Shown here piece after piece: positions 43,492 to 57,979 of a stretch of 64,000 bases of DNA. Source of the DNA: Schumannella luteola (GTDB lineage: Bacteria > Actinomycetota > Actinomycetes > Actinomycetales > Microbacteriaceae); contig NZ_JACBZY010000001.1 of the NCBI RefSeq assembly GCF_013408685.1, positions 3,038,001-3,102,000 on the forward strand, written 5' to 3'. The translations under genes were made by a program, and so were the position numbers. The notes beneath the pieces are model-generated. The model worked only from the letters and a program-made list of their open reading frames with translations, ran no database searches and was not told the DNA's origin. The number at the start of each line of letters is the position of its first letter. Within the stretch, counting starts at the first letter, position 1.

Positions 43492-44094
43492 CTAGCGATC
43501 CAGCCTATCCGACGACGCCGGTGACGCCACCCGCGATCCCCGCACCAGAACGAGGGCCTGGCGCAGGTAGAGCAGACCTGCCCACCAGTACAGGAACGCG
43601 CCCCAGATCGCCGCGGCCCAGCCCACCGCCGAGGTGACGCCGGCCGCCTCGGGGAAGGCCGCGCCGAGCATGAGCACCGGGAAGGCGAACAGCAGGCAGA
43701 AGGTGCCCATCTTGCCGAGGTGATGCACCGGCAGCGGGCCGTGGCCGACGTTCGCCAGGGCGATGCCGATGCCGATCAGCAGCACATCGCGCCCGACGAC
43801 GATCGCGAGGAACCACAGCGGCACGATGCCGGCGATCGCGATGCCCACGAGAGTCGACAGGATGAACAGGCGATCGGCGAGCGGATCGAGCAGCTGACCG
43901 AGGCGCGTGACCTGGCCGAAGCGGCGCGCGATGTAGCCGTCGGCGAAGTCGGTGAGGCTCGACACCGCGATGGTCACGACCGCCCAGGCGTACTCGCCTG
44001 CGATGACCAGCACCAGGAAGACCGGGATCAGGAGCAGGCGGAGGAAGCTCAGGATGTTCGGGATCGTCACGATCCGCGTGCTCACGCTCGTCAC
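43492..44094 (-). CDS. pgsA: CDP-alcohol phosphatidyltransferase (PgsA type)
   Basis: Integral membrane phospholipid synthase, likely phosphatidylglycerol-phosphate synthase. The CDP-alcohol motif DGx2ARx8Gx3Dx3D is complete in DGYIARRFGQVTRLGQLLDPLAD. Helices follow to the C-terminus. Start choice: GTG 44094 (200 residues), with GTG 44085 as a close alternative. The long open frame further upstream is shadow of the neighbouring glycosyltransferase. The -10 TAGACT (44114-44119) overlaps the stop codon of that glycosyltransferase. It is 15 nt before garA, matching the mycobacterial pgsA2-garA neighbourhood. Confidence 0.9.
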   Translation of the reverse strand: MTSVSTRIVTIPNILSFLRLLLIPVFLVLVIAGEYAWAVVTIAVSSLTDFADGYIARRFGQVTRLGQLLDPLADRLFILSTLVGIAIAGIVPLWFLAIVVGRDVLLIGIGIALANVGHGPLPVHHLGKMGTFCLLFAFPVLMLGAAFPEAAGVTSAVGWAAAIWGAFLYWWAGLLYLRQALVLVRGSRVASPASSDRLDR

Positions 44095-44113
44095 CTGGCC
44101 CCCTGTCGCACTG

Positions 44114-44119
44114 AGTCTA
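44114..44119 (-). promoter_or_regulatory. predicted -10 for pgsA-garA-ftsR operon
   Basis: TAGACT on the minus strand lies at the end of the upstream glycosyltransferase gene and separates the core operon from the accessory locus. Confidence 0.45.
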
Positions 44120-45049
44120 GTCATCCGTCCCGCCGCGTCCGGCCTCCGCGCGAGCGCTGCGGCGGGCGGCTCGGGCAGCCCGCACACGCTGGGCGAGCAG
44201 CCGGCGCAGCCACGCCGACCGCATCCGGTCGAGTCGTGTCGCGGCGCGCACGATGTCGGTCGAGAAGCCGCCCACCTCGGCGTCGAAGGCGGCGTCGTCG
44301 ACGGCCGGGTCGATCGCGAGGGCCGTGAGCCGGCGCGCCGGCCGGCCGAGCTCGCGCTGCGCCACCGCGGCAAACGCGGCCGCCGTCGCGGCATCGCGCC
44401 ACGACGATCGCCGCCAGTCGGTCGACGCGGTGATCTGGCTCGGGTGCATCCGATAGGCGAGCACGGGGGCGGCGTCTCGGGCGAGCCGACGCCCGGCGGC
44501 CGCGGCACGCAGCCAGAGCTCGTAGTCCTCGGCCGGCACCGCGGCGTAGCCGCCCAGGTCGTCGAGCACGGCCCGCGTCGCGAGCAGGGTCGGATGCGAC
44601 ACCGGGTTGGTCAGCAGCAGGTGCAGCCCGAAGGCCTCGGGGGTGATCGTGAGCGGAGCGGGGGGACGCACGCGGCGCGGCCGCTCGGAGAACTCGACGA
44701 CGGTCGAGAACAGCAGTTCGGCACGGTGCCGGCGCAGGGCGCGCAGCTGCCGGGCGAAGCGGCCCGGCAGCACCAGGTCGTCGGCGTCCATGCGAGCCAC
44801 GTAGTCGCTGTCCGCCAGTTCGAGCAGATGGTTCAGACCCCGCGCGACGCCGAAGGAGGTCTCGGCGCGCACGAGCCGGATGCGCGCATCCGCGATGCCG
44901 TCGACGATCGACGCCGTGCCATCGGCGCTCGCATCGTCGAGCACGAGCAGCTCGGAGTCACGAGGCATCGCCCGCAGCGTCGAGCGCACCGCCGCACCGA
45001 CCGTGCGGGCGCCGTCGCGCACCGGAAGGAGCACGCTCAGCCGCGGCAC
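44117..45049 (-). CDS. GT2 glycosyltransferase
   Basis: Family 2 glycosyltransferase of 310 residues with a GT-A fold: LSVLLPVRDGA at the N-terminus, LVLDDASADGT, and the metal-binding DxD-type ARMDADDLVLPGR (about 100). The acceptor half includes GGYAAVPAEDYELWLRAAAAG, the ED base region. The C-terminus is Arg/Ala-rich with no transmembrane helix, so it is probably cytoplasmic or peripheral. It should add a sugar to the lipid-linked repeat unit of the surface polysaccharide. Donor and linkage cannot be predicted. Confidence 0.88.
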   Translation of the reverse strand: MPRLSVLLPVRDGARTVGAAVRSTLRAMPRDSELLVLDDASADGTASIVDGIADARIRLVRAETSFGVARGLNHLLELADSDYVARMDADDLVLPGRFARQLRALRRHRAELLFSTVVEFSERPRRVRPPAPLTITPEAFGLHLLLTNPVSHPTLLATRAVLDDLGGYAAVPAEDYELWLRAAAAGRRLARDAAPVLAYRMHPSQITASTDWRRSSWRDAATAAAFAAVAQRELGRPARRLTALAIDPAVDDAAFDAEVGGFSTDIVRAATRLDRMRSAWLRRLLAQRVRAARAARRSARAEAGRGGTDD

Positions 45050-45083
45050 GGCGGGATCCCTCCCCCGAGTCGCGCGACGACGC

Positions 45084-46055
45084 TCACAGCCCGCGCCCGC
45101 GCCGGTTCACCGCGCGCACGAGCGCGCCGGCCGGCAGCAGCCGCAGCGCGATGAGCATCGCCGCCCAGGCGCGCAGCTGACGTCGATCGTGCCGGATCGC
45201 GCGCCGAGCCCAGGCCCGCGCCTCCGGCCGCTCCCCCAGCGCCGCGTGCGCGAAGGCGATCTGCCCCTCCACCCGAGCCGAGCCGCGCGGATCGCGGGCG
45301 AACTCCGGATGCTTGCGCAGCAGGTAGGTGAGTCCGGCGGCGATGCCCTCCCACTTCTCGGAGAAGAAGGACGCCCGGTTCCAGCGCACGAGCACGAGCG
45401 GCTCCGGCACGCTGCGCACGTGACCCACGCGGGCGGCACGCAGCAGCAGGTCGTAGTCCTCGCCGTAGGCCGCCGGCAGCTGCTCGTCGACCGGGCCGAC
45501 GCGGCCGGCCACATCGTCGCGACCGACCAGATCCTCGCGCCGCAGCAGGAAGCTCGAGGGATGGATCTCGGTGATGCGCGAGCGCAGGAAGTCGTCGAAG
45601 TCGGCGCGCTGCGGCGGCACCCGGTCGATCTCGCTCTCGGCGGTGCGGATGCGGATGCCCGTCGCCAGCACGACCGCGCTCGGGTCGTCGCCCCAGGCGG
45701 CCAGCTGCCGGGCGAGCCGCGTCGGCATCCACTCGTCGTCGTCGTCGCAGAAGGCGATCAGCTCGTGGCGGGCCGCGGCGACGCCCGTGTTGCGTCCGCC
45801 GGCGAGCCCCGGGGTGCGCGCGTTCGCGATCGTGCAGACAGTGCGGCCCACCGGCACCTCGACGTCGCCGAGCTCGTCGATCTCGGTCTGGTCGAAGACG
45901 ACGATCACCTCCACCGCGCCGTCGTGCTGCTGCGCGAGCGCGGCGCGCACCGCGGAGCGCAGCAGCTCGGGTCGACCTCGCGTGGCGATCACGACGCTCA
46001 CTCCCGACCGGGCTCCCGGCGCCGTCACGGCGGCGCCCGTCTCGGAATCCGTCAT
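45084..46055 (-). CDS. GT2 glycosyltransferase
   Basis: Second family 2 glycosyltransferase, 323 residues from ATG 46055, which overlaps the Wzy-like stop by 4 nt. The GT-A core shows VSVVIATRGRPELLRSAV, then ARTPGLAGGRNTGVAAARHELIAFCDDDDEWMP with a DDDD metal site, and GEDYDLLLRAARVG. The upstream frame is a Wzy shadow. The C-terminal part has repeated Ala/Arg and resembles a short TPR-like helical tail. It probably acts with the neighbouring GT2 on the same oligosaccharide. Confidence 0.88.
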   Translation of the reverse strand: MTDSETGAAVTAPGARSGVSVVIATRGRPELLRSAVRAALAQQHDGAVEVIVVFDQTEIDELGDVEVPVGRTVCTIANARTPGLAGGRNTGVAAARHELIAFCDDDDEWMPTRLARQLAAWGDDPSAVVLATGIRIRTAESEIDRVPPQRADFDDFLRSRITEIHPSSFLLRREDLVGRDDVAGRVGPVDEQLPAAYGEDYDLLLRAARVGHVRSVPEPLVLVRWNRASFFSEKWEGIAAGLTYLLRKHPEFARDPRGSARVEGQIAFAHAALGERPEARAWARRAIRHDRRQLRAWAAMLIALRLLPAGALVRAVNRRGRGL

Positions 46056-47383
46056 GTCGACTCCCGTCTGATCAGCAGCGCGCCCACGATCATCCCGATG
46101 GCGAGACCCGGCACGAGCACGCCGTAGTAGAAGACCTCGACCAGCAGCACCAGCAGGATCGCGTGGCCGGCGATGCCGATCGCGCCGCGCGCGTGCCGGG
46201 TGCGCCAGACGAGGAAGACCAGCCACGCCAGGAAGAGCGCGGCGGCGGGCAGACCGTGCGAGAACATGACATTCCAGATCTGACCCTGGGTGCCGACCGA
46301 GGGCGCCCCGTCGGTCTCCGAGGGGCGCGGGGCGCCGTAGCCGAACACCGGGGACTCGAGGGTGCGCTCGACCGTCTCGAGGTAGAGGTTCGCGCGGTCG
46401 ACGGTCGTGCTGCTCGTGTCCAGCCGCTCGGTCAGACGCTCCTGCACGGGCAGCACCAGAACGGCGGCGCCGACCAGCACGGCCAGACCGGCGAGACCCG
46501 CGAGCAGCCGGCCGTCGCGCCGCAGCGCCGCGCGCACCGCGATGTAGAGCGCCGCCACGCCGAGACCGAGGAACATGCCGCGGTTGAGGGTGAGGAACGC
46601 CGGCACGAGCGAGAGCGGGATCAGCACGAGCACCAGCCAGAAGCGCCGGGTGCCCCGCACCGACACGAGGTAGGCGATCGCGACCGGCGTCAGCATCGAG
46701 TAGACGTTGCCCCAGCCGTTCGTATAGAGGAAGGGCGCGCTCGGGCGCGGATCGAGCTGCAGCGCCGACGTCGGATCCCACTGCGTCACCCGGCGGATGA
46801 CCATCTCGCGCACCAGCTCGTTCGACTGCAGGGAGTCGGGGATGATCGCCGCGAGCGGGGTCGTGATCGAGAGCAGGGGAACGAGCACACCGAGCCAGCC
46901 CCCGATCACCGTGATGCCCCAGAACGCCGTCAGCACGCCGGCGACGTAGCGGCGGCCGAAGCTCGCCCGGGCGTTGTAGACGTAGAGGAAGACGACCGTG
47001 ACGGCCAGATAGAGGAGCGCGCGGTAGACGAAGCCGATCAGCCGGCCGCCGGAGTCGATGCCGATCACCGAGGCCGCCATCCACACCAGGAAGACCAGCC
47101 ACAGCCCGAAGCCGCGCGGCACCTCTACGCGCCCGCGACGCAGCAGCAGCGCCGCCATGACGACGGCGGCGAGCGGGAACACCAGGTCGCCGATGCCCAG
47201 AACCCACCACAGCGGGTAGCCGACGAAGATCGCGGCGAAGGGCCAGCGCGGCAGATCCGGACGCATCCCCCGGCGCAGCGCGCGGGCATATGCCGAATCC
47301 GGCATGAGTGCGCGCACGGCTTCGCGCGCACTCCGTCGGGGTGCGGAGACGCGGTCGTGCTGCAGCGCTCGGGGGGACGCCAT
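46052..47383 (-). CDS. O-antigen ligase/polymerase (Wzy/WaaL-like) membrane protein
   Basis: Multi-pass membrane protein of 443 residues from ATG 47383 (an in-frame Met 12 codons earlier is possible). About 11 hydrophobic helices and a large extracytoplasmic loop (about residues 300-370) with VDRANLYLETVERTLESPVFGYGAPRP fit the O-antigen ligase family fold. It likely polymerises or transfers undecaprenyl-linked repeat units at the outer face. It diverges from the Wzz-like gene, sharing a 152-nt promoter region. Confidence 0.85.
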   Translation of the reverse strand: MASPRALQHDRVSAPRRSAREAVRALMPDSAYARALRRGMRPDLPRWPFAAIFVGYPLWWVLGIGDLVFPLAAVVMAALLLRRGRVEVPRGFGLWLVFLVWMAASVIGIDSGGRLIGFVYRALLYLAVTVVFLYVYNARASFGRRYVAGVLTAFWGITVIGGWLGVLVPLLSITTPLAAIIPDSLQSNELVREMVIRRVTQWDPTSALQLDPRPSAPFLYTNGWGNVYSMLTPVAIAYLVSVRGTRRFWLVLVLIPLSLVPAFLTLNRGMFLGLGVAALYIAVRAALRRDGRLLAGLAGLAVLVGAAVLVLPVQERLTERLDTSSTTVDRANLYLETVERTLESPVFGYGAPRPSETDGAPSVGTQGQIWNVMFSHGLPAAALFLAWLVFLVWRTRHARGAIGIAGHAILLVLLVEVFYYGVLVPGLAIGMIVGALLIRREST

Positions 47384-47535
47384 GCGGCTAAGAATCCCTC
47401 GCATCTGCTTCTGCCGCAAGCCTCGGCGGGTCTATGCTGTCGCCACCTCACGTGCTCCCGTCGCCCAGCGGGACGCGATCCGGCTCCACCCCGATTCCCC
47501 CGTCGGCACCCGCCCCGGCCGTGATGGAGGACCCC
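47384..47535. promoter_or_regulatory. divergent promoter region of the polysaccharide locus
   Basis: On the plus strand TATGCT (47433-47438) predicts a start near 47445 and a leader of about 90 nt to the Wzz-like gene. On the minus strand GATTCT lies 7 nt before the Wzy-like ATG. No further gene is seen. Confidence 0.45.
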
Positions 47536-49395
47536 GTGCCCGTCTCCCCTGCCCCCGCCCGACCCGGCCTCGCGCCGACCCCGCACCCGACCGCCTCAGC
47601 GCGCGTCGAGCCGGTCGAACCACCGCCGCCCCTGCTCGGCGACTACCTGCGCGCGGCCTTGCGCCGCTGGCGCCTCGTCGTCGCGGTGGCCCTCGCCGGG
47701 CTGCTGCTCTCCGGCGCCGGGCTGCTCGTGCTCGGCTCGCAGGAGACCGCGCGCACCGACCTCAACCTCAACGTCATCTCGACCGATCCGTTCAACGCGC
47801 AGCGCTCGGCCGCGGGTCTGCTCGACGGGCCGACCGAGGTGCAGATCGCGCGCTCCTACGCCGTCGCCGACGCCGCCTCGAAGCGGCTCGGGGGCGTTCC
47901 GCCGGAGGAGCTGCGCGACGGCCTGACCGCCGAGCTGGTCGCGCAGGCCACCGTCATGCGCATCAGCTACACGGCATCCGACGAGACCACGGCCCGCGAA
48001 CGCGCCGACGCGATCGCCGCCGCCTACCTGGACTACCGCGGCGACCAGGCGGTCGAGCGTCGTCGCGCGGTCGTCGACCAGGTCGATGCACGCCTCGACG
48101 AGCTGCGCGACTCGCTCACCGATGTGGATGCGCGCGCCGCCGCGGCCGAGCCAGGAAGCAGCGCCGCGAACCAGGCGCAGAGCGACCGGCAGCTCATCAC
48201 GATCGAGGTCGACAGCCTGCTCAGTCAGCGCAACTCGCTGCAGCTGATCGACGCCTCCGGCGGATCGGTGCTGAGCTCCGCCTCGAGCAACCCGATCGCC
48301 TCCGCCCCGAACCGCCCGCTCGTGCTCGCGAGCGGACTGCTCGCCGGTCTCGTGATCGGGTTGACCGCCGCCGTGGTCGCCAACCTGCTCGATCGACGGG
48401 TGCGCAGCGCCGACGATGTCGAGCGCTTCACCGGCGCCCCGGTGCTGACCCAGCTGCCCGGCCGGATCGGCAGCCTGCCCGCCGGTCCCGGCGACGCCGA
48501 ACTGCTGCGCACCGTGCGCGAACGGCTGCTCGCGCGTCTCGGCGGCACGACCGGGGCGATCGCCATCGTCGACGACGGCCCCGCCGAGCTCGCGGGCGAG
48601 GTCGCCATCCACCTCGCCGTCGCGATCGGGCAGAGCGGAGCGCCCGTGCGGCTGCTGCTGCCCGGGATCGACGAGACCACGCTCGAACGGCTGCGCTCCG
48701 CGCTCGGCCTGCGGCTGCTGAGCCGAGGCGACGAGATCAGCGTCTGGTCGCCGCAGGAGCTCGGCGAGCTGCGGCTGATCGTCGTCGAGCACCGCGGCGG
48801 GCTCGCCGATCCGGATGCGCTGCTGACCCGGGCGGTCGTCGCCGACATCGCCCGTCACCGCGACGCCGAGCTCGTGCTGCTCGCCCTGCCGTCCGCCGCG
48901 CCGCAGGCCAGTCGACTCGCCGCGGCGCGGCTCACCGGAGCCGTGCTCGGCGTCGCCGCGCTCGGCAGCACCTCCCGCGCCGTTCTCGCCCGCGACGCGG
49001 AGGGCTTCGAGAGCCTGGGCACCGAGCTGCTCGGCTCGGTGCTGATCTCGGGCCGGCGCCGACTCGAGCCCGCGTCGGCCGACGAGCCGCCGGCGCCCGA
49101 GGAGCCGCGCATCGTGCGTCGTACCGAGCCGCCGCGCGCCAAGTCGCCCTCGCGGCCGGCGTCGCGGCGACGCGGCGCAGCGGCGGACAGCGCCGCGGCG
49201 AGTGACGTCGCCGCGGACGGACCGGCTTCGACCACGGCGGATCCCGCCGCCGAGCTGCCGGACAGCGCGACGCGCGCGAGCCGCGGCGGCGCGGTCGGCC
49301 GCTCCGCACCGGACGTCGACGACGATTCCGAGACGCCGGACTCATCGACGTCGACAGGGTCGAACCGCGTCCGCGACGCCGTCCTCCCCGCGTGA
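47536..49395 (+). CDS. Wzz-like chain-length protein with degenerate BY-kinase domain
   Basis: 619 residues from GTG 47536 (GGAGG 5 nt upstream; ATG 47524 also possible). A Pro-rich N-terminus leads to a first transmembrane helix (about 48-70), an extracytoplasmic helical region (about 75-245), and a second helix (about 260-285). This is the Wzz/Wzc layout. The cytoplasmic part (about 310-520) aligns in shape with bacterial tyrosine-kinase/ParA folds. Where a Walker A should be, it reads AIAIVDDGPAELAGEVA, lacking GKS/T. Instead of a Tyr cluster the tail (about 520-619) is Ser/Pro/Asp-rich. It may regulate chain length without kinase activity. Confidence 0.82.
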   Translation: MPVSPAPARPGLAPTPHPTASARVEPVEPPPPLLGDYLRAALRRWRLVVAVALAGLLLSGAGLLVLGSQETARTDLNLNVISTDPFNAQRSAAGLLDGPTEVQIARSYAVADAASKRLGGVPPEELRDGLTAELVAQATVMRISYTASDETTARERADAIAAAYLDYRGDQAVERRRAVVDQVDARLDELRDSLTDVDARAAAAEPGSSAANQAQSDRQLITIEVDSLLSQRNSLQLIDASGGSVLSSASSNPIASAPNRPLVLASGLLAGLVIGLTAAVVANLLDRRVRSADDVERFTGAPVLTQLPGRIGSLPAGPGDAELLRTVRERLLARLGGTTGAIAIVDDGPAELAGEVAIHLAVAIGQSGAPVRLLLPGIDETTLERLRSALGLRLLSRGDEISVWSPQELGELRLIVVEHRGGLADPDALLTRAVVADIARHRDAELVLLALPSAAPQASRLAAARLTGAVLGVAALGSTSRAVLARDAEGFESLGTELLGSVLISGRRRLEPASADEPPAPEEPRIVRRTEPPRAKSPSRPASRRRGAAADSAAASDVAADGPASTTADPAAELPDSATRASRGGAVGRSAPDVDDDSETPDSSTSTGSNRVRDAVLPA

Positions 49396-50165
49396 GCGCG
49401 TCGACCGTCCCGCGCCGGCGCCGGATCGTCGGCGTCCCCGTCGACGCCGTGACCGAGCAGCAGCTGCTCGACCGGATCGACGACTGGCTGCGCGACGGCG
49501 GTGTGCATGTCGCCGTCGGCGTGAACGCGCACGTGTGCAACCTCGCGGCTCGGGATGGCGCTCTGCGCGCACGACTCGAGGCGGCTGACCTCTGCTATGC
49601 CGACGGGCAGTCGGTCGTCGCGGCCGCGCGACTGCTGGGGCATCCCGTGCCGGAGCGTCTCGCCACGACCGACGTGGTGCATCCGCTCGCCGCGCGCGCC
49701 GCGGCCGCCGGGGTGCGCGTGTTCCTGTTCGGCGGGCGTCCCGGCGTCGCGGCGCAGGCCGCCGGGCGGCTGCGTCGCGAGAACCCCGGTCTCGAGGTGG
49801 CCGAGCAGCACGGCTATCTGCCGCCCGAGCACACCTCGGAGCTGCTCGAGCGGATCGCGGCGTTCCGCCCCGGCATCCTGCTCGTCGGCCTCGGCGATCC
49901 CGCCCAGCAGGACTGGATCGCCGCGAACCGTCACGCGCTGACCGCGCCGGCCGTGCTCAGCTGCGGCGGCCTGTTCGACTGGCTCGCGGGCTCGCACCGG
50001 CGCGCCCCGGCGTGGATGATCCGGGCCGGCCTCGAATGGCTCTGGCGCCTGCTCATCGAGCCGCGCCGACTCGCCCGGCGCTACGTTCTCGGCAACCCCG
50101 CGTTCGTGCTGCGACTCGCTCGGCAGCTGCTGCGAGAACGCGGTCGGGGGCGAGGCGCCCCGTGA
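49392..50165 (+). CDS. WecG/TagA/CpsF-family glycosyltransferase
   Basis: GT26-family transferase of 257 residues, acting on lipid-linked glycan at the inner membrane face. Family marks: NAHVCNLAARD, the conserved YADGQSVV with the catalytic Asp, GGRPGVA, and the C-terminal SCGGLFDWLAGSHRRAPAWM...LEWLWRLLIEPRRLARRY. Members add ManNAc(A) or similar sugars to undecaprenyl-PP-GlcNAc (enterobacterial common antigen, teichoic-acid linkage units). It starts 4 nt inside the preceding gene (GTGA) and overlaps the flippase by 4 nt. Confidence 0.92.
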   Translation: MSASTVPRRRRIVGVPVDAVTEQQLLDRIDDWLRDGGVHVAVGVNAHVCNLAARDGALRARLEAADLCYADGQSVVAAARLLGHPVPERLATTDVVHPLAARAAAAGVRVFLFGGRPGVAAQAAGRLRRENPGLEVAEQHGYLPPEHTSELLERIAAFRPGILLVGLGDPAQQDWIAANRHALTAPAVLSCGGLFDWLAGSHRRAPAWMIRAGLEWLWRLLIEPRRLARRYVLGNPAFVLRLARQLLRERGRGRGAP

Positions 50166-51694
50166 CCGCGCCGGCGACCGCCGCGGCCGACGACAGCGCC
50201 GCCGATCGGCGGCGGCTGGCGCGAGGCGGCGGACTGAGCTTCCTCGGCTCGGCGCTCAGCGCCCTGCTCGGCTTCGCCGCGACGGTCGTGATCACGCGCT
50301 CGCTCGGCGACGCCGGCGCCGGGCAGGTGCTGCAGCTCATCGCCGTGATCACGATCGCGCTGAGCTTCGGCCGGCTCGGCATGGACTCGGTCGGCGTCTG
50401 GCTGCTGCCGCGGCTCGGCGAGGCGCCGCAGCGCATCCGCCCCGCCGTGACGCTGCAGCTCGGCGTCGCGCTGCTCGGCGGGGGCGCGGCCGCGCTCGTC
50501 GTCGCGCTCGCACTGCCGCAGCTCGCGACGGGGATCGACCCGGACCTGCTGAGGTCGGCCGCCGCGGTGCTGCCCGCCGGCTGCGTGATGCTCGTCGCGC
50601 TCGCGGCGCTGCGCGGGCTCGGCGGCCTGCGCGGATACGTGCTCATCGGCAGCGTCGTGCTGCCGTCCACGCGCGTGCTCGCGCTGCTGGCCGCCGCGCT
50701 GCTGGTCGCGACCCCGCTCGCCCTCGGGCTGGCCTGGGCCCTGCCGCTCATCCCGCTCGCCGTCATCGCGGTCGTGGTTCTGCTGCGCCGCGTGCGCGCG
50801 TCGGCGCCGCCGCCCGGTTCCGGGGCCGGTCGCCCGCGTCGCGCATCCTGGATCCCCGATCGCGGGCTCACCCGCCAGAGCCTCGGCTATGCGCTGCCGC
50901 GCACCCTCTCGGCCGTGCTCGAGCAGGGCCTGCTCTGGCTCGACGTGATCATCGTGGGCGCCCTCGCCGGGTCGGCGGCCGCGGGCGACTACGGCGCCGC
51001 CAGCCGGCTGATCGCCGCCGGGCTCATCATCGACACCGCGCTGCGTGTCGTCGTCGCGCCCCGCTTCAGCGCGCTGCTGCACGCCGGACGCCGCAGTGAG
51101 ACCGAGGCGCTCTACCGCACCGCCGCCTCCTGGCTCGTGCTCTTCAGCGCCCCGATCTACCTGCTGCTCGCCGTCTTCGCGCCGCTCGTGCTGACCTGGT
51201 TCGGCGAGGGCTTCGGCGACGGCGCGACGGCGCTGATGATCCTCTGCGCCGGGGCGATCGTGACGTTCCTCGCCGGCAACGTGCACTCGCTGCTGCTCAT
51301 GAGCGGCCGCAGCGGGTGGGCCGCCGCGAACAAGGCGATCGTGCTCGCGCTCAACGTGACCGCGAACCTGCTGCTCGTGCCCGTCTTCGGCATCACCGGG
51401 GCCGCCGCCGCGTGGGCCGGCGCGATGCTGCTCGATGCGGTGCTCGCCGGCGTGCAGGTGCGGCTGCTGCTCGGCATCCGCCCCGCGCTCGGCCACGTGC
51501 TCGGCGCGCTGCTGGTGCCGCTGGTGCTCGTCGGCGCACCCGCGCTGCTGCTGCGCTGGGCGCTCGGAGCCACGCTGCCGGCGCTGCTGCTGAGCATCGG
51601 CGTCGGCGGTGCCGCGCTGCTCGTGTGGGCCCGGCTCGACGGCCGCCGGCACCACCTCGACGAGCTGACGGCGGCGTTCCGACGTCGGAGCTGA
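50162..51694 (+). CDS. polysaccharide flippase (Wzx/MviN-MATE superfamily)
   Basis: Integral membrane protein of 510 residues with about 14 hydrophobic segments. The start GTG overlaps the WecG stop by 4 nt; further upstream frame is WecG shadow. The N-terminal GGGLSFLGSALSALLGFAATVVITRSLGDAGAG is typical of Wzx-type flippases (polysaccharide biosynthesis protein family). It should move the undecaprenyl-PP-linked repeat unit across the membrane, feeding the Wzy-like protein on the opposite strand. Confidence 0.92.
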   Translation: MTAPATAAADDSAADRRRLARGGGLSFLGSALSALLGFAATVVITRSLGDAGAGQVLQLIAVITIALSFGRLGMDSVGVWLLPRLGEAPQRIRPAVTLQLGVALLGGGAAALVVALALPQLATGIDPDLLRSAAAVLPAGCVMLVALAALRGLGGLRGYVLIGSVVLPSTRVLALLAAALLVATPLALGLAWALPLIPLAVIAVVVLLRRVRASAPPPGSGAGRPRRASWIPDRGLTRQSLGYALPRTLSAVLEQGLLWLDVIIVGALAGSAAAGDYGAASRLIAAGLIIDTALRVVVAPRFSALLHAGRRSETEALYRTAASWLVLFSAPIYLLLAVFAPLVLTWFGEGFGDGATALMILCAGAIVTFLAGNVHSLLLMSGRSGWAAANKAIVLALNVTANLLLVPVFGITGAAAAWAGAMLLDAVLAGVQVRLLLGIRPALGHVLGALLVPLVLVGAPALLLRWALGATLPALLLSIGVGGAALLVWARLDGRRHHLDELTAAFRRRS

Positions 51695-51962
51695 CCGCGC
51701 ACCGGGATCGCGCGGCAGCGGCCTCGGCGAAGCCCGCTGACGCGCCCTCTCCGGGCTCCCCCTGACCGGCTCGATGCGGTCTGTTGCCGAGCGGATCTCG
51801 CGTGCTAGCATCCGGCCACCCCCACAACCACGGGTGCCGACGAGCTCCACGTCGCCCCGTCGCACACTGCATCTCCCCGAACCGCAGGAAGCCTCCCCCG
51901 ACATCCCGCTCTTCCGTCGCCCCGCCCTGGCGACGGCGCCTGTCGTCGAGGCATGGAGCACC
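51695..51962 (+). promoter_or_regulatory. internal promoter and long leader in the polysaccharide locus
   Basis: TTGCCG (51784-51789), 16 nt, then TAGCAT (51806-51811) gives a good housekeeping-type promoter. About 145 nt of untranslated leader follow, including an 8-bp hairpin (51914-51936) just before the GGAG ribosome-binding site. No small open frame in the leader looks convincing. Confidence 0.55.
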
Positions 51963-52637
51963 ATGTCCGAAGACCCGACGCCGCCGGTCGACCCCGAACC
52001 GGCTCCCGCGCCCGCCGTGCCGCGAGCACCGCGCCGCCGCGTCCGCACGATCGTGCTCTCGATCGTGACCGGAGCCGCCGCTCTCGCGCTCGCCGTGGCC
52101 GGCATCGCCGCCCTGGCTCCCGCCGGCGGCCCCACCAGCTCGTCGACCAGCCGCGCCGGCGCGGGCCCGTCCGGCCCCGCCTCCCCCTCGGCATCGCCCT
52201 CCCCCGGGGCGAGCGCCGGCGCGGCCACCTCCCCCGATCCGGCCGCCGTGCTCGGCGGGCTGCTCGCGGCGGGCGCCGAGGCCTCGAGCGACCCGAGCAC
52301 CGGCACCGCCCGCGTCGACGACGTCGCGACCGGAGCGCTGCTGGCCGAGATCGCCAACGACCAGCAGGAGCTCGCCGCCTTCGGCTGGACGCGCACCGGC
52401 ACGCCGAAGATCGTGTCCGCCTCGGTGCTCAGCACCGACCCGGCCGCGACCCCGGCGCAGATGGTCGTGCGCGCCTGCATCGACAGCAGCGGCGTGACGA
52501 CCTACGACTCCGAGGGCGCCCCGCTGCCCAGCGACCCCACGGTCGTGCCCCGCTCGCTGAGCGACTTCACCCTGATCGACGCGAGCGGCCGCTGGCTGGT
52601 CGCCGACCGCTCCTACCCCGACGACCCCCAGTGCTAG
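51963..52637 (+). CDS. membrane-anchored protein of unknown function
   Basis: 224 residues. The ATG is preceded by GGAG; the in-frame upstream extension lacks a signal. A Pro-rich cytoplasmic N-terminus with RAPRRRVR leads to one transmembrane helix (about 32-56) and then a Ser/Pro/Ala linker (about 60-95). The extracytoplasmic domain (about 98-224) has two cysteines, in VVRACIDSS and at the last residue, which could pair. The shape resembles NTF2-like domains of other actinobacterial exported proteins, but that is inference. It sits 11 nt before the large secreted mosaic protein and is probably co-expressed with it. Confidence 0.75.
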   Translation: MSEDPTPPVDPEPAPAPAVPRAPRRRVRTIVLSIVTGAAALALAVAGIAALAPAGGPTSSSTSRAGAGPSGPASPSASPSPGASAGAATSPDPAAVLGGLLAAGAEASSDPSTGTARVDDVATGALLAEIANDQQELAAFGWTRTGTPKIVSASVLSTDPAATPAQMVVRACIDSSGVTTYDSEGAPLPSDPTVVPRSLSDFTLIDASGRWLVADRSYPDDPQC

Positions 52638-52648
52638 GCGGACCCGAC

Positions 52649-55600
52649 ATGTCGCACACCCCCACCCCCGCTCGCCGTCACCTGCGCCGCGCGCTCATCG
52701 CCCTGATGGGCGGCGCCCTGGCTGCCGGCGCTCTCGCACCGCTGCCCGCCCTGGCCGAGGCGCCGCTGCCGAACCCGGACGGCAAGAGCGAGCTGACCGC
52801 CGCCGCCTCCTGCTGGGAGATCAAGCAGCGCGATCCCTCGTCCGCGAGCGGCGTCTACTGGCTCTGGACTCCCCAGCTCGGAGCGGCGGATCGCTTCTAC
52901 TGCGATCAGACGACCGACGGCGGCGGATGGGTGCTCATCGCTCGCGGACGCGAGAACTTCTCCACCACCGACGAGGGCCGCGGCACCGCCGATCAGGTGC
53001 GCGATCCGATCACCGGGCAGGCCGCGTTCGACGCGCGCCAGCTGCCGTCGCGCACGGTCGAGGCGCTGCTCGGCGGGCAGAAGGTCAGCGAGCTCACGGA
53101 CGGCGTGCGACTGCGGCGAGCGCTGGACGTCGCCGGGTCGAACTTCCAGGAGGTGCGGTTCACCTTCAGCTCGCCGCGCGACGACTGGTCGTGGATGTTC
53201 AACAACCAGCAGCGGGTGAAGACCTGGAAGGTCGGCAACGCGAGCGGCACGGGCGGCAACACGAGCGGTTTCGGCTCGGGCGGCGGTCAGAACCGGGTCG
53301 ACACCTCGACCGGCTCGACGCAGGGCTGGAGCGACGGCTTCGGCTATGGCGCCGACACGAAGGGCAGCAACGCCGCGTCGAGCTGGATGTGGTCGAAGGA
53401 CGCGAACAGCGGCTACGCCCGCGGCTTCACCCAGGTGTTCCTGCGGCCGAAGACGACCAGCTCGACCCTGTTCACCGCGATCCCCGACGCCGGCTCGCCC
53501 GCCTCCACCGTCACGGCCGTGGCCTCGAGCTTCGCGCTGCCGACCAACTGGGGCATCGCGGGCAAGGGCGCCGGCCCGTCGTCGATCGAGGGCAGCGTGC
53601 AGGGCGGCGCCTTCACCGAGGCCAACGGCGTCGTCTACGTCGGCGGCAACTTCACGACGGTGCAGAAGACCGCCGCGGGCGGCAGCGCTGTCGCGCAGCC
53701 GTACCTCGCCGCCTTCGACCGGGCGACCGGCGAGCTCAAGACCGCGTTCCGCCCGGTGTTCAACAACCAGGTGAAGGCGCTCGCGGCCCTGCCGGACGGC
53801 CGTATCGCCGTCGGCGGCTACTTCACCCAGGTCAACGGCCAGCCGAAGGCCGGACTGGTCGTGCTCGACCCGACGACCGGCGCGACCTCGAACGACTGGA
53901 CCGGCCGCATCATCGACCGCACCAACAACAACGCCTTCGTGCGTTCGCTCGACGTCCAGGACGGCTGGCTCTACGTCGGCGGCATCTTCACGCACTCGAC
54001 CGGCGGCAGCACCTCGACCGAGTGGTACACGAAGGGCGCCGCGCGACTCTCCGTCGCGAACGGCACTCCGGACGGCAGCTGGAACCCCGAGCTGAACGGG
54101 CGGGTCATGTCGCTCGACGCCTCGGCGCGCGGTGACCGGGTCTACCTGGCCGGCTTCTTCACCGCGTCGAAGGGCACCGCCACCGACTCCGCCGCCGCGC
54201 TCACCACGAGCGGCGCCGCGGTCGTGCCGTGGTCGACGGTCTTCTCCGACACCAAGCACTACCAGCAGGCCGTGAAGGAGGTCGGCGACACCGTCTGGCT
54301 CGGCGGCTCCGAGCACTCCTTCTTCAGCTACGGCCGAGCCGACCTGAAGCTGATCTCCTCCACCGTCGGCAATGCCGGCGGCGACTTCCAGGCGGCCGCC
54401 ACGGACGGCAAGGTCATCTACGGCAGCTGCCACTGCTTCCAGACGCAGTACATGGGCAGCAAGACCTGGCCGAACATCGGCCAGAGCTGGTACAAGGCCG
54501 AGAAGATCAACTCGGTCGGCGCCTGGGATGCGGCCACGGGCCGCTACCTCGACGCCTTCAACCCGAGCGTCAACCAGGCGGAGGGCGCCGGCGGCTGGGC
54601 GCTGTTCGTCGACTCGACCGGCACGCTGTGGGCGGGCGGCGACTACACCTACTCGGAGACGGCGCCGACGAAGCGGCAGTGGTCGGGCGGCTTCGTGCGC
54701 TTCCCGCTGCGCGACAGCACGGCCCCGACGACGCCGACGAGCCTCTCGGTGACCTCGGCCGGCAGTCAGGTCGCGCTGAGCTGGGGCGGATCGGCCGACG
54801 CCTCGGGCGCGGTGACCTACCAGGTGCTGCGCAACGACCGCGTCGTGGCCACCACCACGACGAACACGATCACGCTGCCCGACGCCCCCGCCGCGACGAA
54901 GTACTTCGTGCGCGCCGCCGACGCTGCCGGCAACATCTCGGCCAGCACACCGGCCGCGAGGATCGGGTCGACGCCGCCACCGGTCGACCCGGTGGGCAAT
55001 CCCAACCTGATCACCGCCGGATCCACCTGGTCGTACAAGTACGACGGCGAAGCGGCTCCCGCCGGCTGGAACACCGCGGGCTTCGACGCGGCCGGCTGGT
55101 CGAGCGGCGCCGCGCCGCTCGGCTGGGGCACCTCGGCGATCGCGACGACCGTGACCTCGACGGTCACCCCGAAGCCGCTCACGGCCTACTACCGCAAGGC
55201 GGTCGACATCAGCACCGCCGGTCTCGGGTCGGTGACGCTGACGACCCGCGCGGATGACGGGATCGTGGTCTACGTCAACGGCACCGAGGTGGCTCGCAAG
55301 AACATCGACGCGGGCGCGGTGACGGTCGGCACCTACGCGAACGCCGCGCCGTCGACGGCGGCCGCGGTCGCCGCACCGGTGACGGTGACCGTGCCGGCGA
55401 GCGCCTTCGTCAACGGCCGCAACGTGATCTCCGCGGAGGTGCACGCGAACTACCGCTCGACGCCGAACACGAGCTTCGAGCTCACCGCCACGGCGAGCAC
55501 CGGCGGCACGACGCCGGTCGACGTGCCCGACCCCGAGGATCCGGTCGACCCGGGCGCCCCGACCGACCCGGGCGCCGGCGGAGCGCTCCCGGCCGGCACG

Positions 55601-56104
55601 ACGCTGCTCGCCCCCGGATCGAGCTGGTCGTACAGCTACCCCGTGGACGCCCCGGCCGCCGACTGGCGCACCGCGGCCTTCGACGCAGGGAGCTGGGCGA
55701 CCGGAGCCGCCCCGGTCGGCTGGGGCAGCGCATCCATCGCCACGACCGTGACGGCGACCGCGACGCCGAAGCCGAGCTCGCTGTACTTCCGGGGAGGCTT
55801 CGACCTCGCGGCGGGAGCATCCGTGCCGAACGGGCTCACGGTGACCACCCGCGCCGACGACGGCATCATCGTGTTCCTCAACGGCACCGAGATCGGGCGC
55901 TCGAACCTCATCCCCGGCACGATCGGCCACAACACCTACGCGAACAGCGCTCCGTCGACCGCCGCGGCCGTCGCGAGCCCGGTCGTGTTCGACGTGCCGG
56001 CGAACCTGGTGGTGAGCGGACGCAACACGATCGCCGTGCAGGTGGTGTCGAACTACCGCTCGTCGCCGAGCGTGAGCTTCGACCTGGGAGTGGTCGTGAA
56101 GTGA
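52649..56104 (+). CDS. large secreted mosaic protein: fibrinogen-like, beta-propeller, FN3, two jelly-roll domains
   Basis: 1151 residues from ATG 52649. Sec signal: basic n-region, hydrophobic core and ALA-EA at about 35-38. Domain order: fibrinogen-like region (about 52-268) with SCWEIKQR and YCDQTTDGGGWVLIARG; a beta-propeller (about 312-685) with repeated VGGNFTTV, VGGYFTQVNG, VGGIFTHS, LAGFFTAS and WAGGDYTYS blades; a fibronectin type III domain (about 690-770); and two related domains (about 785-950 and 984-1151), each with WxxGxAPxGWG and TRADDGI...NGTE. No LPXTG or transmembrane anchor is seen. It is likely a surface or matrix adhesin, or a glycan-binding protein. The stop overlaps the next GTG. 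Confidence 0.88.
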   Translation: MSHTPTPARRHLRRALIALMGGALAAGALAPLPALAEAPLPNPDGKSELTAAASCWEIKQRDPSSASGVYWLWTPQLGAADRFYCDQTTDGGGWVLIARGRENFSTTDEGRGTADQVRDPITGQAAFDARQLPSRTVEALLGGQKVSELTDGVRLRRALDVAGSNFQEVRFTFSSPRDDWSWMFNNQQRVKTWKVGNASGTGGNTSGFGSGGGQNRVDTSTGSTQGWSDGFGYGADTKGSNAASSWMWSKDANSGYARGFTQVFLRPKTTSSTLFTAIPDAGSPASTVTAVASSFALPTNWGIAGKGAGPSSIEGSVQGGAFTEANGVVYVGGNFTTVQKTAAGGSAVAQPYLAAFDRATGELKTAFRPVFNNQVKALAALPDGRIAVGGYFTQVNGQPKAGLVVLDPTTGATSNDWTGRIIDRTNNNAFVRSLDVQDGWLYVGGIFTHSTGGSTSTEWYTKGAARLSVANGTPDGSWNPELNGRVMSLDASARGDRVYLAGFFTASKGTATDSAAALTTSGAAVVPWSTVFSDTKHYQQAVKEVGDTVWLGGSEHSFFSYGRADLKLISSTVGNAGGDFQAAATDGKVIYGSCHCFQTQYMGSKTWPNIGQSWYKAEKINSVGAWDAATGRYLDAFNPSVNQAEGAGGWALFVDSTGTLWAGGDYTYSETAPTKRQWSGGFVRFPLRDSTAPTTPTSLSVTSAGSQVALSWGGSADASGAVTYQVLRNDRVVATTTTNTITLPDAPAATKYFVRAADAAGNISASTPAARIGSTPPPVDPVGNPNLITAGSTWSYKYDGEAAPAGWNTAGFDAAGWSSGAAPLGWGTSAIATTVTSTVTPKPLTAYYRKAVDISTAGLGSVTLTTRADDGIVVYVNGTEVARKNIDAGAVTVGTYANAAPSTAAAVAAPVTVTVPASAFVNGRNVISAEVHANYRSTPNTSFELTATASTGGTTPVDVPDPEDPVDPGAPTDPGAGGALPAGTTLLAPGSSWSYSYPVDAPAADWRTAAFDAGSWATGAAPVGWGSASIATTVTATATPKPSSLYFRGGFDLAAGASVPNGLTVTTRADDGIIVFLNGTEIGRSNLIPGTIGHNTYANSAPSTAAAVASPVVFDVPANLVVSGRNTIAVQVVSNYRSSPSVSFDLGVVVK
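55003..56101 (+). repeat. tandem duplication of jelly-roll-like domain
   Basis: About 55003-55497 and 55594-56101 encode two copies with matching landmarks: GSTWSYKYDG/GSSWSYSYPV, SGAAPLGWGTSAIATTV/TGAAPVGWGSASIATTV, TLTTRADDGIVVYVNGTEVAR/TVTTRADDGIIVFLNGTEIGR, and the closing NYRSTP/NYRSSP. A Pro/Asp-rich linker separates them. Confidence 0.85.
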
Positions 56105-56859
56105 CGGCGCCCATCACGATCGTGCCGGGCCCGACGCCGGTCCCGGCACGCAGCCTCGGCGAGGCGCTCGCCGCCCTCGACTCGGCGCAGAAACCCGGAG
56201 GCGGCGTGCCCGCCTACACCCGATGGGTCAACCGCCGGGCGGCTCGGCTCGTCGCCGCCCTCGGCTACGTGATCGGGGCGAGCGCGGATGCGGTGACGGT
56301 CGCCTCGGCGGTGCTCTCCGCCGCCGGGCTCGCCGTGCTGATCCTCGCGCCCATCACCCTCTGGAGCGGACTCGTCGCCGCGCTGCTGCTCGCCCTGGGC
56401 TACGTGTTCGACTCGGCCGACGGTCAGCTCGCGCGGCTCTCCCGCACCGGCGGGCCGGCCGGCGAATGGCTCGACCACGTCGTGGATGCGATCCGCACCC
56501 CCGCGATCCACCTGGCCGTGCTCGTCGCGCTCTGGCGGCACGGCGACGTCGGCGCCGGCTGGCTCTGGCTGCCGATCGCCTACACGGTGCTCGCCGTCGG
56601 CCAGTTCATGAGCCAGATCCTCGCCGAGCAGCTCGCCCGCGGACTCGGTTCGGATGCCGGCATCCCGCGCGGCGGCGGCGCGCTGCGCTCGCTCGCGCTG
56701 CTGCCCACCGACATGGGCGCGCTCTGCTGGGTCTTCGCGCTCTGGGCGTGGACGCCCGCGTTCCTGATCGGATACGGGCTGCTCTTCGCCGTGAACCTGG
56801 TGCATGCGGTCGCCTCGATGGCCCGCAAGCACCGGCGCCTGCGGGCCCTGTCGAGCTGA
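56101..56859 (+). CDS. CDP-alcohol phosphotransferase of the polysaccharide locus
   Basis: Membrane enzyme of 252 residues with about six hydrophobic helices. The CDP-alcohol phosphotransferase motif is complete: DGQLARLSRTGGPAGEWLDHVVD fits DGx2ARx8Gx3Dx3D. It differs from the PgsA-type protein at 43492 and has a cytosolic N-terminus of about 50 residues. The GTG overlaps the stop of the secreted mosaic gene by 4 nt, placing it in the polysaccharide operon. It may make a specialised phospholipid, or transfer a phospho-alcohol such as phosphoglycerol to the glycan. The substrate is unknown. Confidence 0.85.
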   Translation: MTAPITIVPGPTPVPARSLGEALAALDSAQKPGGGVPAYTRWVNRRAARLVAALGYVIGASADAVTVASAVLSAAGLAVLILAPITLWSGLVAALLLALGYVFDSADGQLARLSRTGGPAGEWLDHVVDAIRTPAIHLAVLVALWRHGDVGAGWLWLPIAYTVLAVGQFMSQILAEQLARGLGSDAGIPRGGGALRSLALLPTDMGALCWVFALWAWTPAFLIGYGLLFAVNLVHAVASMARKHRRLRALSS

Positions 56860-57013: not shown

Positions 57014-57484
57014 ATGTCGTGCATCCGCTTCAACACCCCGGCCCAGCGCGCCCAGCTCGCCCGGATGGCGCCGAGCATGAAGACCGCCGAGGAGATCGCG
57101 AACGAGCACCCCGCTCCCCCGGTCACCGAGAGCAAGATCCGTCGACTGCGCGTGCTCGCCGAGAGCCCGGTCGGCAAGATCCGCGAGAGCGTCGCCTCGA
57201 GCTATCACACCCCCGCCGACGTGATCGAGAAGCTCAAGCAGGACCCCGACGCGAGCGTGCGCGCTGTGCTCGCCCGCAACGAGACCACTCCGTGCGACGT
57301 GCTGCGCGACCTCGCCGACGACGAGTCGGCCACCGTGCGCGGCTGGGTCGCCGTGAACTACTTCGTGCCCGACGACGTCATGCAGAAGCTCGCCGACGAC
57401 GAGGACGACACCGTGCGGCGACTCGTCGCGTGGAAGGCCTCGCTGGCCGAGGAGGCCGCGCAGCTCGAGGGTCAGCCCGCCTGA
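57014..57484 (+). CDS. small HEAT/LRV-like repeat protein
   Basis: 156 residues from ATG 57014. After about 45 residues (Met/Ala-rich), four helical repeats of about 24-26 residues follow, starting near LRVLAESP, IEKLKQDP, LRDLADDE and MQKLADDE. Each has a V(R/K)..VA core and a closing P-x-D-V. This pattern matches leucine-rich-repeat-variant/HEAT-like solenoids used for protein binding. The cysteines are too few for the Fe-S cluster reported in some LRV proteins. It is cytoplasmic, with unknown partners. It converges with the Nudix gene. Confidence 0.78.
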   Translation: MSCIRFNTPAQRAQLARMAPSMKTAEEIANEHPAPPVTESKIRRLRVLAESPVGKIRESVASSYHTPADVIEKLKQDPDASVRAVLARNETTPCDVLRDLADDESATVRGWVAVNYFVPDDVMQKLADDEDDTVRRLVAWKASLAEEAAQLEGQPA

Positions 57485-57499: not shown

Positions 57500-57979
57500 T
57501 CAACTCAGTCGCGACCGCAGCTCCGGCCAGCTCGCGGCGAAGGAGGGGTGCAGCGGCAGCGCATCCACCTCGCCGATCGCGACCCAGTCCAGGCGCGTGC
57601 TCTCGGCGTCGCCGAGGATCGGCTCGAAGCGCTCGGTGACCTCGCCGAGCACGGTCGTGTACGACCAGTAGCCGAGGTCGAAGACGAGCTCGCCAGAGAC
57701 GACGACCCGCTCGGGCGGCACACCCGCCTCTTCGTCGGCCTCACGCAGCGCCGCCTGCTCGGCGGTCTCGCCGGCCTTGCGGGCGCCGCCCGGGATGCCC
57801 CAGGTGCCGCCGAAGTGACTCCACTCCGCCCGCAGCTGCAGCAGCACGGCATCCGCGCTGCGCACGAGCAGACCGGCCGCGCCGAAGGAGCCCCAGAAGC
57901 GTCCCTGCGGTCCCTCGACCCAGACGTCCTCGGGGCCGCGCGGTCGCCGCGCCGAGGAATCGTGGGTCGCGCGCGTCAT
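57500..57979 (-). CDS. Nudix hydrolase
   Basis: Nucleoside-diphosphate-linked hydrolase of 159 residues. The Nudix box Gx5Ex7REUxEExGU is complete in GARKAGETAEQAALREADEEAGV. The upstream GGTWGIPGG and downstream VFDLGYWSYTTVLGEV fit the MutT/8-oxo-dGTPase-like group, though the substrate is not predictable. Minus-strand TAGGCT lies 6 nt before the ATG with no Shine-Dalgarno. Confidence 0.92.
   Translation of the reverse strand: MTRATHDSSARRPRGPEDVWVEGPQGRFWGSFGAAGLLVRSADAVLLQLRAEWSHFGGTWGIPGGARKAGETAEQAALREADEEAGVPPERVVVSGELVFDLGYWSYTTVLGEVTERFEPILGDAESTRLDWVAIGEVDALPLHPSFAASWPELRSRLS

What the first reader, a model, noticed from the sequence alone, without database searches (positions are those of the whole stretch)
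44117..56859. Wzx/Wzy-type polysaccharide locus ending in a giant mosaic adhesin and a CDP-alcohol phosphotransferase
Two GT2 enzymes and a Wzy/ligase-like protein diverge from a Wzz-like protein, WecG/TagA transferase, Wzx flippase, an anchored unknown, a 1151-residue secreted mosaic protein and a CDP-alcohol phosphotransferase. Every plus-strand junction except flippase/unknown is within 11 nt or overlaps by 4 nt. No priming phosphoglycosyltransferase is visible. Working model (inference): a lipid-linked glycan is assembled, exported, decorated with a phospho-alcohol or phospholipid, and bound by the fibrinogen-like/beta-propeller protein at the surface. I know of no named system with this exact gene set.
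Basis: partly seen in the sequence, partly recalled or inferred. Interest (0 to 1): 0.7.

Follow-up and report, generated by a model that had tools for sequence, protein, structure and literature searches.

The report
Sugar-coat locus with phospho-alcohol tagging pair
This bacterial gene cluster probably builds and exports a surface sugar polymer together with a large secreted matrix-like protein, and a membrane enzyme resembling the last step of the human phosphatidylcholine pathway, whose likely partner enzyme lies elsewhere on the same chromosome, probably tags the polymer or a lipid with a phosphate-linked alcohol.

Summary
The locus belongs to a conserved actinobacterial module: anchored NTF2-like protein (Unk), secreted fibrinogen-like/beta-propeller/jelly-roll protein (mosaic), CDP-alcohol phosphotransferase (CAP), GT2, Wzy and Wzx. 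In 50 of 51 loci with a strong mosaic homologue the CAP directly follows the mosaic gene (one locus is in twice). Two parts missing from the window were found. The genome's only Bac_transf priming transferase lies 58 kb downstream, and its stop codon overlaps the start of an HxGH cytidylyltransferase (CTase) by one base. In relatives the CTase is often inside the CAP locus. It is present in 45 of 46 CAP genomes (of 150 in the family) and in 50 of 50 (of 394 in the class). The CAP has the full catalytic motif plus the Glu and His of human CEPT1 that AF2299 and PIP synthase lack. Best explanation: a Kennedy-type pair (CTase makes CDP-X, CAP transfers phospho-X) inside a Wzx/Wzy pathway, with the mosaic as secreted matrix adhesin. 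The CTase-CAP partnership is well supported; X (glycerol most likely), the acceptor (lipid-linked glycan or a lipid) and the adhesin's ligand are inferred. New variant of a known kind.

The parts
44117..45049 (-). GT2 glycosyltransferase a (310 aa); found in 9 of 51 mosaic loci
   Evidence: Pfam PF00535 77 bits
45084..46055 (-). GT2 glycosyltransferase b (323 aa); the conserved GT of the module, 46 of 51 mosaic loci
   Evidence: Pfam PF00535 71 bits
46052..47404 (-). Wzy_C / O-antigen-ligase-like polymerase (450 aa, about 10 TM by hydropathy); 50 of 51 mosaic loci
   Evidence: PF04932 37.4 bits, cut-off 31.7
47434..49395 (+). Wzz/polysaccharide co-polymerase-like protein (653 aa, two hydrophobic segments); 37 of 51 mosaic loci
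   Evidence: NCBIfam TIGR01006 39 bits (below its cut-off 296), TIGR03017 37 bits
49392..50165 (+). WecG/TagA/CpsF glycosyltransferase (257 aa); 17 of 51 mosaic loci
   Evidence: PF03808 193 bits; TIGR00696 146.8 bits, cut-off 69
50162..51694 (+). Wzx-type flippase (510 aa); 48 of 51 mosaic loci
   Evidence: PF01943 42 bits
51963..52637 (+). Unk: TM-anchored extracytoplasmic domain, NTF2-like / ARC6-IMS-like fold (224 aa), invariant Cys172 and Cys224; 44 of 51 mosaic loci
52649..56104 (+). Mosaic protein (1151 aa): signal peptide, fibrinogen-like domain (about 45-275), beta-propeller (about 287-692), Fn3-like segment (about 693-775), two jelly-roll repeats (about 780-955 and 976-1151, 54% identical), no sortase motif
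56101..56859 (+). CDP-alcohol phosphotransferase (CAP, 252 aa, about 6 TM) with intact motif and CEPT1-like GEWLDH
   Evidence: PF01066 31.5 bits, cut-off 22; alignment A3 of 36; PDB profile search

Best explanation
The locus is the surface-assembly part of a conserved actinobacterial Wzx/Wzy polysaccharide system with its own phospho-alcohol chemistry. A Bac_transf transferase (elsewhere in this genome) and/or WecG start the chain on a polyprenyl carrier, GT2 enzymes extend it, Wzx flips it, Wzy polymerises it and the Wzz-like protein sets length. In parallel an HxGH cytidylyltransferase (CTase), encoded next to the Bac_transf gene, makes CDP-X from CTP and X-phosphate, and the membrane CAP moves phospho-X from CDP-X onto a hydroxyl at the cytoplasmic face of the membrane, most likely on the lipid-linked glycan before it is flipped. 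The mosaic protein is exported by its signal peptide and acts as a secreted, sugar-binding matrix adhesin; the anchored NTF2-like protein next to it is probably its or the polymer's docking partner at the outer face of the membrane. Shown: gene content, conserved neighbourhood, CTase-CAP co-occurrence, intact CAP motif with CEPT1-type residues, predicted folds. Inferred: all catalytic steps, X (glycerol most likely), the acceptor, the ligand of the mosaic and the role of Unk.
For: Conserved module: of 51 loci with a strong mosaic homologue (E < 1e-70), the CAP lies within 600 nt downstream on the same strand in 50, Wzy is present in 50, Wzx 48, GT2b 46, Unk 44, Wzz 37; of 49 CAP loci without it, Wzy 2, Wzx 1, GT2b 2, Unk 0 (L065 and L085 are one locus). 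Full contiguous order Unk-mosaic-CAP-CTase-GT2-Wzy-Wzx in L178. CTase-CAP link: family, 150 genomes: both 45, CAP only 1, CTase only 2, neither 102; class, 394 genomes: both 50, CAP only 0, CTase only 6 at E < 1e-30, or 20 at the search threshold of 1e-15. Control: Bac_transf is in 111 of the same 150 genomes, including all 46 with a CAP and 65 without, so the CTase link is not merely the presence of such a polysaccharide pathway. Same-contig distance CAP-CTase: 40 of 43 genomes within 30 kb, 9 within 2 kb. In G044 (L066) the two genes overlap by 4 nt. In this genome the CTase start overlaps the Bac_transf stop (TGATG). CAP: D104xxD107GxxA111R112x8G121xxxD125xxxD129 plus E122 and H126 invariant in 36 of 36 aligned members; these align with CEPT1 Glu151 and His155 (numbering checked), for which the CEPT1 paper reports cytidine contact and a proposed general base (passages, PMC10156783), while AF2299 and PIP synthase have Ala and Gly/Ala there. 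No conserved Arg/Lys in CAP residues 130-252, unlike the acceptor Arg pair of PIP synthases (passages, PMC4634129). CTase nearest solved relatives: PCYT2, then TagD. Mosaic: propeller and carbohydrate-binding-like Pfam matches.
Against: No biochemistry and no expression data. Nothing ties the phospho-alcohol to the glycan rather than to a lipid: CEPT1, which shares the Glu and His, uses diacylglycerol. About six TM helices (hydropathy only) would argue against a fully lipidic acceptor by the rule stated in PMC4634129, but that rule was drawn from few enzymes. In this species the CTase is 59 kb from the CAP, and a TagF-like enzyme that could also use its product is present. The CTase is below every NCBIfam equivalog cut-off and has Tyr where TagD has the Arg of RTEGIST, so X is not settled. 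The window's own CAP has Asp at the position of CEPT1 Asn86, where 32 of 36 have Asn. Co-occurrence tests ignore shared ancestry, and the class-level E-value limit was chosen after seeing a gap between 1.2e-38 and 3.0e-22. The 100 loci were all selected by the CAP and are biased to close relatives.
Confidence: 0.5

Rival explanations
1. The CTase-CAP pair makes a polar lipid, for example phospho-X-diacylglycerol or a phospho-X glycolipid, that anchors or retains the polymer or mosaic protein at the membrane; the glycan itself is not modified. This is closest to the true Kennedy pathway.
For: The CAP shares GExxDHxxD with CHPT1/CEPT1, whose acceptor is diacylglycerol; the mosaic has no sortase motif or evident C-terminal anchor in the 30 homologues inspected, so some other means of retention would be useful.
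Against: About six TM helices rather than the extra three or four of enzymes with lipid acceptors (hydropathy; rule from passages of PMC4634129); constant company of glycan-assembly genes in the mosaic loci.
Confidence: 0.28
2. The Wzy_C protein is a PglL-type oligosaccharyltransferase and the locus is a protein O-glycosylation system whose substrate is the mosaic protein.
For: One Wzy_C protein, always with the mosaic gene in the sampled mosaic loci (50 of 51); Wzy_C covers polymerases, ligases and PglL-type enzymes (recalled); actinobacteria lack lipopolysaccharide (recalled).
Against: A Wzz-like chain-length protein in 37 of 51 mosaic loci points to polymerisation; the Wzy_C match is too weak to separate the classes (37 bits). 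Not otherwise tested.
Confidence: 0.12
3. The CTase is simply the CDP-glycerol source for a TagF-type teichoic acid pathway, and its company with the CAP is historical.
For: The genome has a 952-aa protein with two Glyphos_transf domains at 2.41 Mb, and of the five CTP_transf_like matches in the genome the other four look like NadD, CoaD, RibF and an NadR-like protein by eye.
Against: Absent from 103 of 150 family genomes and, with 2 exceptions, found only with the CAP there; often inside the CAP locus; the teichoic-type region has its own MobA-like nucleotidyltransferase. TagF was not searched in the other genomes.
Confidence: 0.06
4. The CAP is an ordinary CDP-diacylglycerol-dependent phospholipid synthase that happens to lie here.
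For: Pfam PF01066 covers mostly such enzymes (recalled); best NCBIfam matches are archaetidylinositol- and phosphatidylinositol-phosphate synthases.
Against: Far below those equivalog cut-offs (47.8 against 180, 35.3 against 170 bits); PIP-synthase Arg pair not conserved; three other CAPs in the genome; tight CTase partnership.
Confidence: 0.04

Closest known systems
Wzx/Wzy-dependent exopolysaccharide/capsule loci
   Same: Flippase, Wzy_C, Wzz-like, WecG and GT2 enzymes in two tight divergent gene sets; a Bac_transf priming enzyme in the genome.
   Different: A secreted propeller/fibrinogen-like protein, an anchored NTF2-like protein and a CAP are constant parts; the priming enzyme is 58 kb away; a CTase partners the CAP.
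Kennedy CDP-choline/ethanolamine pathway (PCYT2 + CEPT1/CHPT1)
   Same: HxGH cytidylyltransferase paired with a CAP; CAP with GExxDHxxD and the CEPT1 Glu151/His155 equivalents.
   Different: About six rather than ten TM helices; sits in polysaccharide loci; substrates unknown; no choline-kinase-family gene (PF01633) in this genome.
TagD/TarD + TagB/TagF teichoic-acid glycerol-phosphate transfer, and capsule relatives of it
   Same: CTase of the same superfamily with HxGH and GDDW.
   Different: The transferase is an integral-membrane CAP instead of a Glyphos_transf (PF04464) enzyme; CTase below the TagD equivalog cut-off (62 against 165 bits).
AF2299 and the archaeal inositol-phosphate CAPs
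   Same: AF2299 is the top PDB match of the CAP (5.2e-13); non-lipid CDP donors are known there (passages, PMC4634129).
   Different: AF2299 lacks the Glu and His of GExxDH; no polysaccharide context known to me.
Secreted biofilm matrix adhesins of other bacteria such as Bap1/RbmC of Vibrio cholerae (recalled)
   Same: Secreted propeller plus sugar-binding-like domains encoded with polysaccharide genes.
   Different: Different domain set; no homology tested; ligand unknown.

Membership tests
Wzx/Wzy-dependent polysaccharide system | Wzx flippase and Wzy polymerase encoded together | tested here: met
   PF01943 42 bits and PF04932 37 bits, both over cut-off; both in 48 or more of 51 mosaic loci
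Wzx/Wzy-dependent polysaccharide system | Priming phosphoglycosyltransferase | tested here: met
   None in the window; one PF02397 enzyme in the genome, 58 kb away, over the TIGR03025 EPS_sugtrans cut-off (402 against 296 bits). That it serves this locus is inferred.
Wzx/Wzy-dependent polysaccharide system | Wzz/PCP chain-length protein | tested here: inconclusive
   Matches the C-terminal PCP region of several models, all below cut-off; two hydrophobic segments
Wzx/Wzy-dependent polysaccharide system | A polymer lost on deletion of wzy or wzx | not testable with these tools
   needs genetics
Class I CDP-alcohol phosphotransferases | DxxDGxxARx(7-8)GxxxDxxxD motif in an integral membrane protein | tested here: met
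   Invariant in 36 of 36; PF01066 over cut-off; several hydrophobic segments
CEPT1/CHPT1 choline/ethanolamine phosphotransferases | Glu151 and His155 equivalents (GExxDHxxD) | tested here: met
   E122 and H126 in 36 of 36; roles from passages of PMC10156783
CEPT1/CHPT1 choline/ethanolamine phosphotransferases | Additional three or four C-terminal TM helices for a lipid acceptor | tested here: not met
   252 aa, about six TM by hydropathy only; rule from passages of PMC4634129. It is therefore not filed as a CEPT, only as working like one at the donor side.
PIP/PGP-type synthases (phosphorylated acceptor) | Conserved Arg pair in the acceptor pocket | tested here: not met
   No conserved Arg/Lys in residues 130-252 of 36 members; feature from passages of PMC4634129
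TagD/TarD glycerol-3-phosphate cytidylyltransferase | TIGR01518 equivalog cut-off 165.4 bits | tested here: not met
   62.4 bits (own CTase), 70.5 and 72.2 bits (two relatives)
TagD/TarD glycerol-3-phosphate cytidylyltransferase | HxGH and RTEGIST signatures | tested here: inconclusive
   HxGH invariant in 26 of 26; RTEGIST is replaced by PYTxxTSS(T/S)
Teichoic-acid pathway (TagF type) | Glyphos_transf (PF04464) enzyme in the locus | tested here: not met
   None of the window's locus proteins matches it; present elsewhere in the genome
ARC6-IMS / NTF2-like domain (Unk) | Fold | tested here: met
Fibrinogen-like YCDxxxxGGGW proteins (NF040941) | Model match over cut-off | tested here: met
   72.4 bits, cut-off 30

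The most novel reading that the evidence does not exclude
A previously undescribed branch of CDP-alcohol phosphotransferases that acts on glycans: a CEPT1-like membrane enzyme and its dedicated cytidylyltransferase decorate a lipid-linked repeat unit with a phospho-alcohol before export, across Actinomycetes from Schumannella and Microbacterium to Rothia and Pseudonocardiales, and the decorated polymer is the ligand of a co-encoded secreted propeller adhesin.
Probability: 0.35. Interest if true: 0.8.

Novelty: new variant of a known kind. Interest (0 to 1): 0.6.

Why it matters
If true, it extends the CDP-alcohol phosphotransferase family from lipids and small polyols to surface glycans, gives a gene marker (CAP + CTase) for predicting phosphodiester-bearing polysaccharides in many actinobacteria, including the oral commensal Rothia, and names a widespread, uncharacterised secreted matrix-protein family that is inherited with the polymer locus. 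It also shows how a pathway can look incomplete in a window because two genes moved together.

Tried and rejected

Literature: eight full-text searches in the open-licence PMC library found no paper on a CAP-CTase pair in actinobacterial polysaccharide loci or on this mosaic protein; two searches returned no paper at all. Passages only were seen of PMC12419801, PMC13390465, PMC12275187, PMC4634129 and PMC10156783; all other papers only as search listings. Subscription papers are not covered.

The list of Bac_transf places was truncated, so adjacency of Bac_transf and CTase (at least 10 of 47 genomes, counted by eye) is a minimum. My notebook says the Bac_transf/CTase overlap is 4 nt; the sequence shows one base (TGATG).
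Full report
What is there. The window lies at 3,038,001-3,102,000 of a 3.75-Mb single-contig genome. The closest named relatives of the CAP are Schumannella soli (88% identical) and another Schumannella (84%), so the host is a Schumannella-like member of the Microbacteriaceae. Base composition of the locus (0.72-0.76 GC) is not far from the rest of the window.

Neighbourhood test. I searched 150 genomes of the family with the CAP and with the mosaic protein. The CAP is found in 58 at E <= 1e-3 and in 46 at E < 1e-20; the mosaic in 38 at E <= 1e-3 and in 10, own genome included, at E < 1e-200. In all 10 the CAP lies next to the mosaic gene on the same strand. The reverse does not hold: 36 of the 46 CAP genomes have no strong mosaic match. 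I then collected 100 CAP loci: 20 chosen from these genomes and the best 80 of 306 relatives in named genomes. One locus is in twice (L065 = L085). By phmmer with the window's proteins, 51 loci have a strong mosaic homologue. In 50 of these the CAP is within 600 nt downstream on the same strand; the exception is L137 (Prauserella), where the mosaic is about 5 kb away on the other strand. Among the 51, Wzy is found in 50, Wzx in 48, GT2b in 46, Unk in 44, Wzz-like in 37, WecG in 17, GT2a in 9. Among the 49 CAP loci without it the counts are 2, 1, 2, 0, 8, 0 and 0. So Unk-mosaic-CAP-GT2b-Wzy-Wzx is a real module, found in Schumannella, Microbacterium, Cryobacterium, Kocuria, Glutamicibacter, Paeniglutamicibacter, Arthrobacter, Rothia (including R. 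mucilaginosa) and others; some Rothia loci carry two or three mosaic genes in a row (L104, L108, L117, L127). Counting any large propeller protein of 300 aa or more (E < 1e-5 to a profile of the mosaic's propeller), 72 of the 100 loci have one, 22 of them among the 49 non-mosaic loci.

The missing partner. Clustering the neighbours showed an HxGH cytidylyltransferase of about 150 aa in 48 of the 100 loci (33 of 51 mosaic, 15 of 49 others) and a Bac_transf priming transferase in 42. Neither is in the window. In the window's own genome there is one Bac_transf gene, at about 3,152,761-3,154,287, and its stop codon overlaps the start codon of a cytidylyltransferase of that family (TGATG; genome about 3,154,287-3,154,769; L171:9288-9770). 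They lie 58 and 59 kb downstream of the CAP. The sister genome G118 has the same pair 55 kb away, so the split looks like a rearrangement in this genus (inference). In L178 the CTase lies between CAP and GT2b in one contiguous set Unk-mosaic-CAP-CTase-GT2-Wzy-Wzx; in G044 CAP and CTase overlap by 4 nt.

Co-occurrence. Family, 150 genomes: CAP and CTase both in 45, CAP only in 1 (G124, a 290-contig assembly), CTase only in 2 (G129, G142), neither in 102; Fisher p = 1e-34, without correction for ancestry. Class, 394 genomes: CAP in 50; CTase in 70 at E <= 1e-15, of which 56 at E < 1e-30, a limit set after seeing the gap in the list; all 50 CAP genomes have a strong CTase, 6 have a strong CTase alone, 20 if the looser limit is used. 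Control: Bac_transf occurs in 111 of the 150 family genomes, with all 46 CAP genomes among them and 65 without CAP. Of 43 genomes with both genes on one contig, 9 have them within 2 kb, 21 within 10 kb and 40 within 30 kb; the window's species, its sister and G014 (451 kb) are the outliers.

Chemistry. All 36 aligned CAPs keep D-SA-D-G-Q-x-A-R-x8-G-E-W-L-D-H-x-x-D. Profile search of the PDB ranks AF2299 first (5e-13), then cholinephosphotransferase 1 (2.5e-8), PIP synthase (5e-7) and CEPT1 (1e-6). The Glu and His of GEWLDH are shared with CHPT1/CEPT1 and not with AF2299 (GAWLDG) or PIP synthase (GAVLDA). In CEPT1 these are Glu151, which contacts cytidine, and His155, a proposed general base (passages of PMC10156783; numbering checked). 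The family has no conserved Arg or Lys after residue 130, whereas PIP synthases need an Arg pair for their phosphorylated acceptor (passages of PMC4634129). It has about six hydrophobic segments; the same paper ties extra helices to lipid acceptors. The CTase's nearest solved relatives are PCYT2 (profile E 1.5e-30 over two domains) and TagD (4.8e-19). It keeps HxGH in 26 of 26 and GDDW in most members, but has PYTxxTSS where TagD has PRTEGIST; the Fom1 cytidylyltransferase has a similar PYTPGISST. It scores below all NCBIfam equivalog cut-offs. I therefore conclude a Kennedy-type pair with an unassigned alcohol. Glycerol is my first guess because its phosphate needs no dedicated kinase and no choline-kinase-family gene is in the genome; this is an inference.

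Complication. The genome also has a TagF-like protein with two Glyphos_transf domains at 2.41 Mb and a weaker match at 2.43 Mb, with what looks by eye like a prophage between them and a teichoic-acid-type ABC transporter beyond. A MobA-like nucleotidyltransferase sits beside that transporter, so this pathway may have its own CDP-alcohol supply. Other roles of the CTase are not excluded.

Verdict. I rate it a new variant of a known kind (Wzx/Wzy loci), with a bolder possibility of glycan-acting CDP-alcohol phosphotransferases.

Noticed in passing
window 43492-44124 (-): Cardiolipin-synthase-like CAP (ClsA model 215 bits, cut-off 240) directly downstream of the first GT2 gene, overlapping by 8 nt; one of four CAPs in the genome. 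Conserved there only in Schumannella among the loci seen.
   Followed up: partly
window 58100-59660 (+): Thermolysin-type M4 protease followed by, and slightly overlapping, an emfourin-domain protein, which looks like a protease-inhibitor pair.
   Followed up: no
window 57014-57484 (+): Small leucine-rich-repeat-variant protein just downstream of the CAP, followed by a NUDIX hydrolase on the other strand (57500-57979).
   Followed up: no
window 41589-43476 (-): FHA-domain protein and two MerR-type regulators in a row, next to a ParA-like ATPase (40578-41456) and pyruvate carboxylase (37141-40587).
   Followed up: no
L187 13785-20000 and L188 1-12228 (genome about 2.414-2.432 Mb): By eye a prophage (integrase-like, portal- and tail-like ORFs) sits between a TagF-like double-domain gene and the rest of what looks like a teichoic-acid locus.
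   Followed up: no
L104, L108, L117, L127 (Rothia): Two or three mosaic-type genes in tandem upstream of the CAP, suggesting expansion of the secreted protein in this host-associated genus.
   Followed up: no
L066, G044:C148:14789-18181: A second full-length mosaic homologue on another contig of G044; whether a CAP lies near it was not looked at.
   Followed up: no
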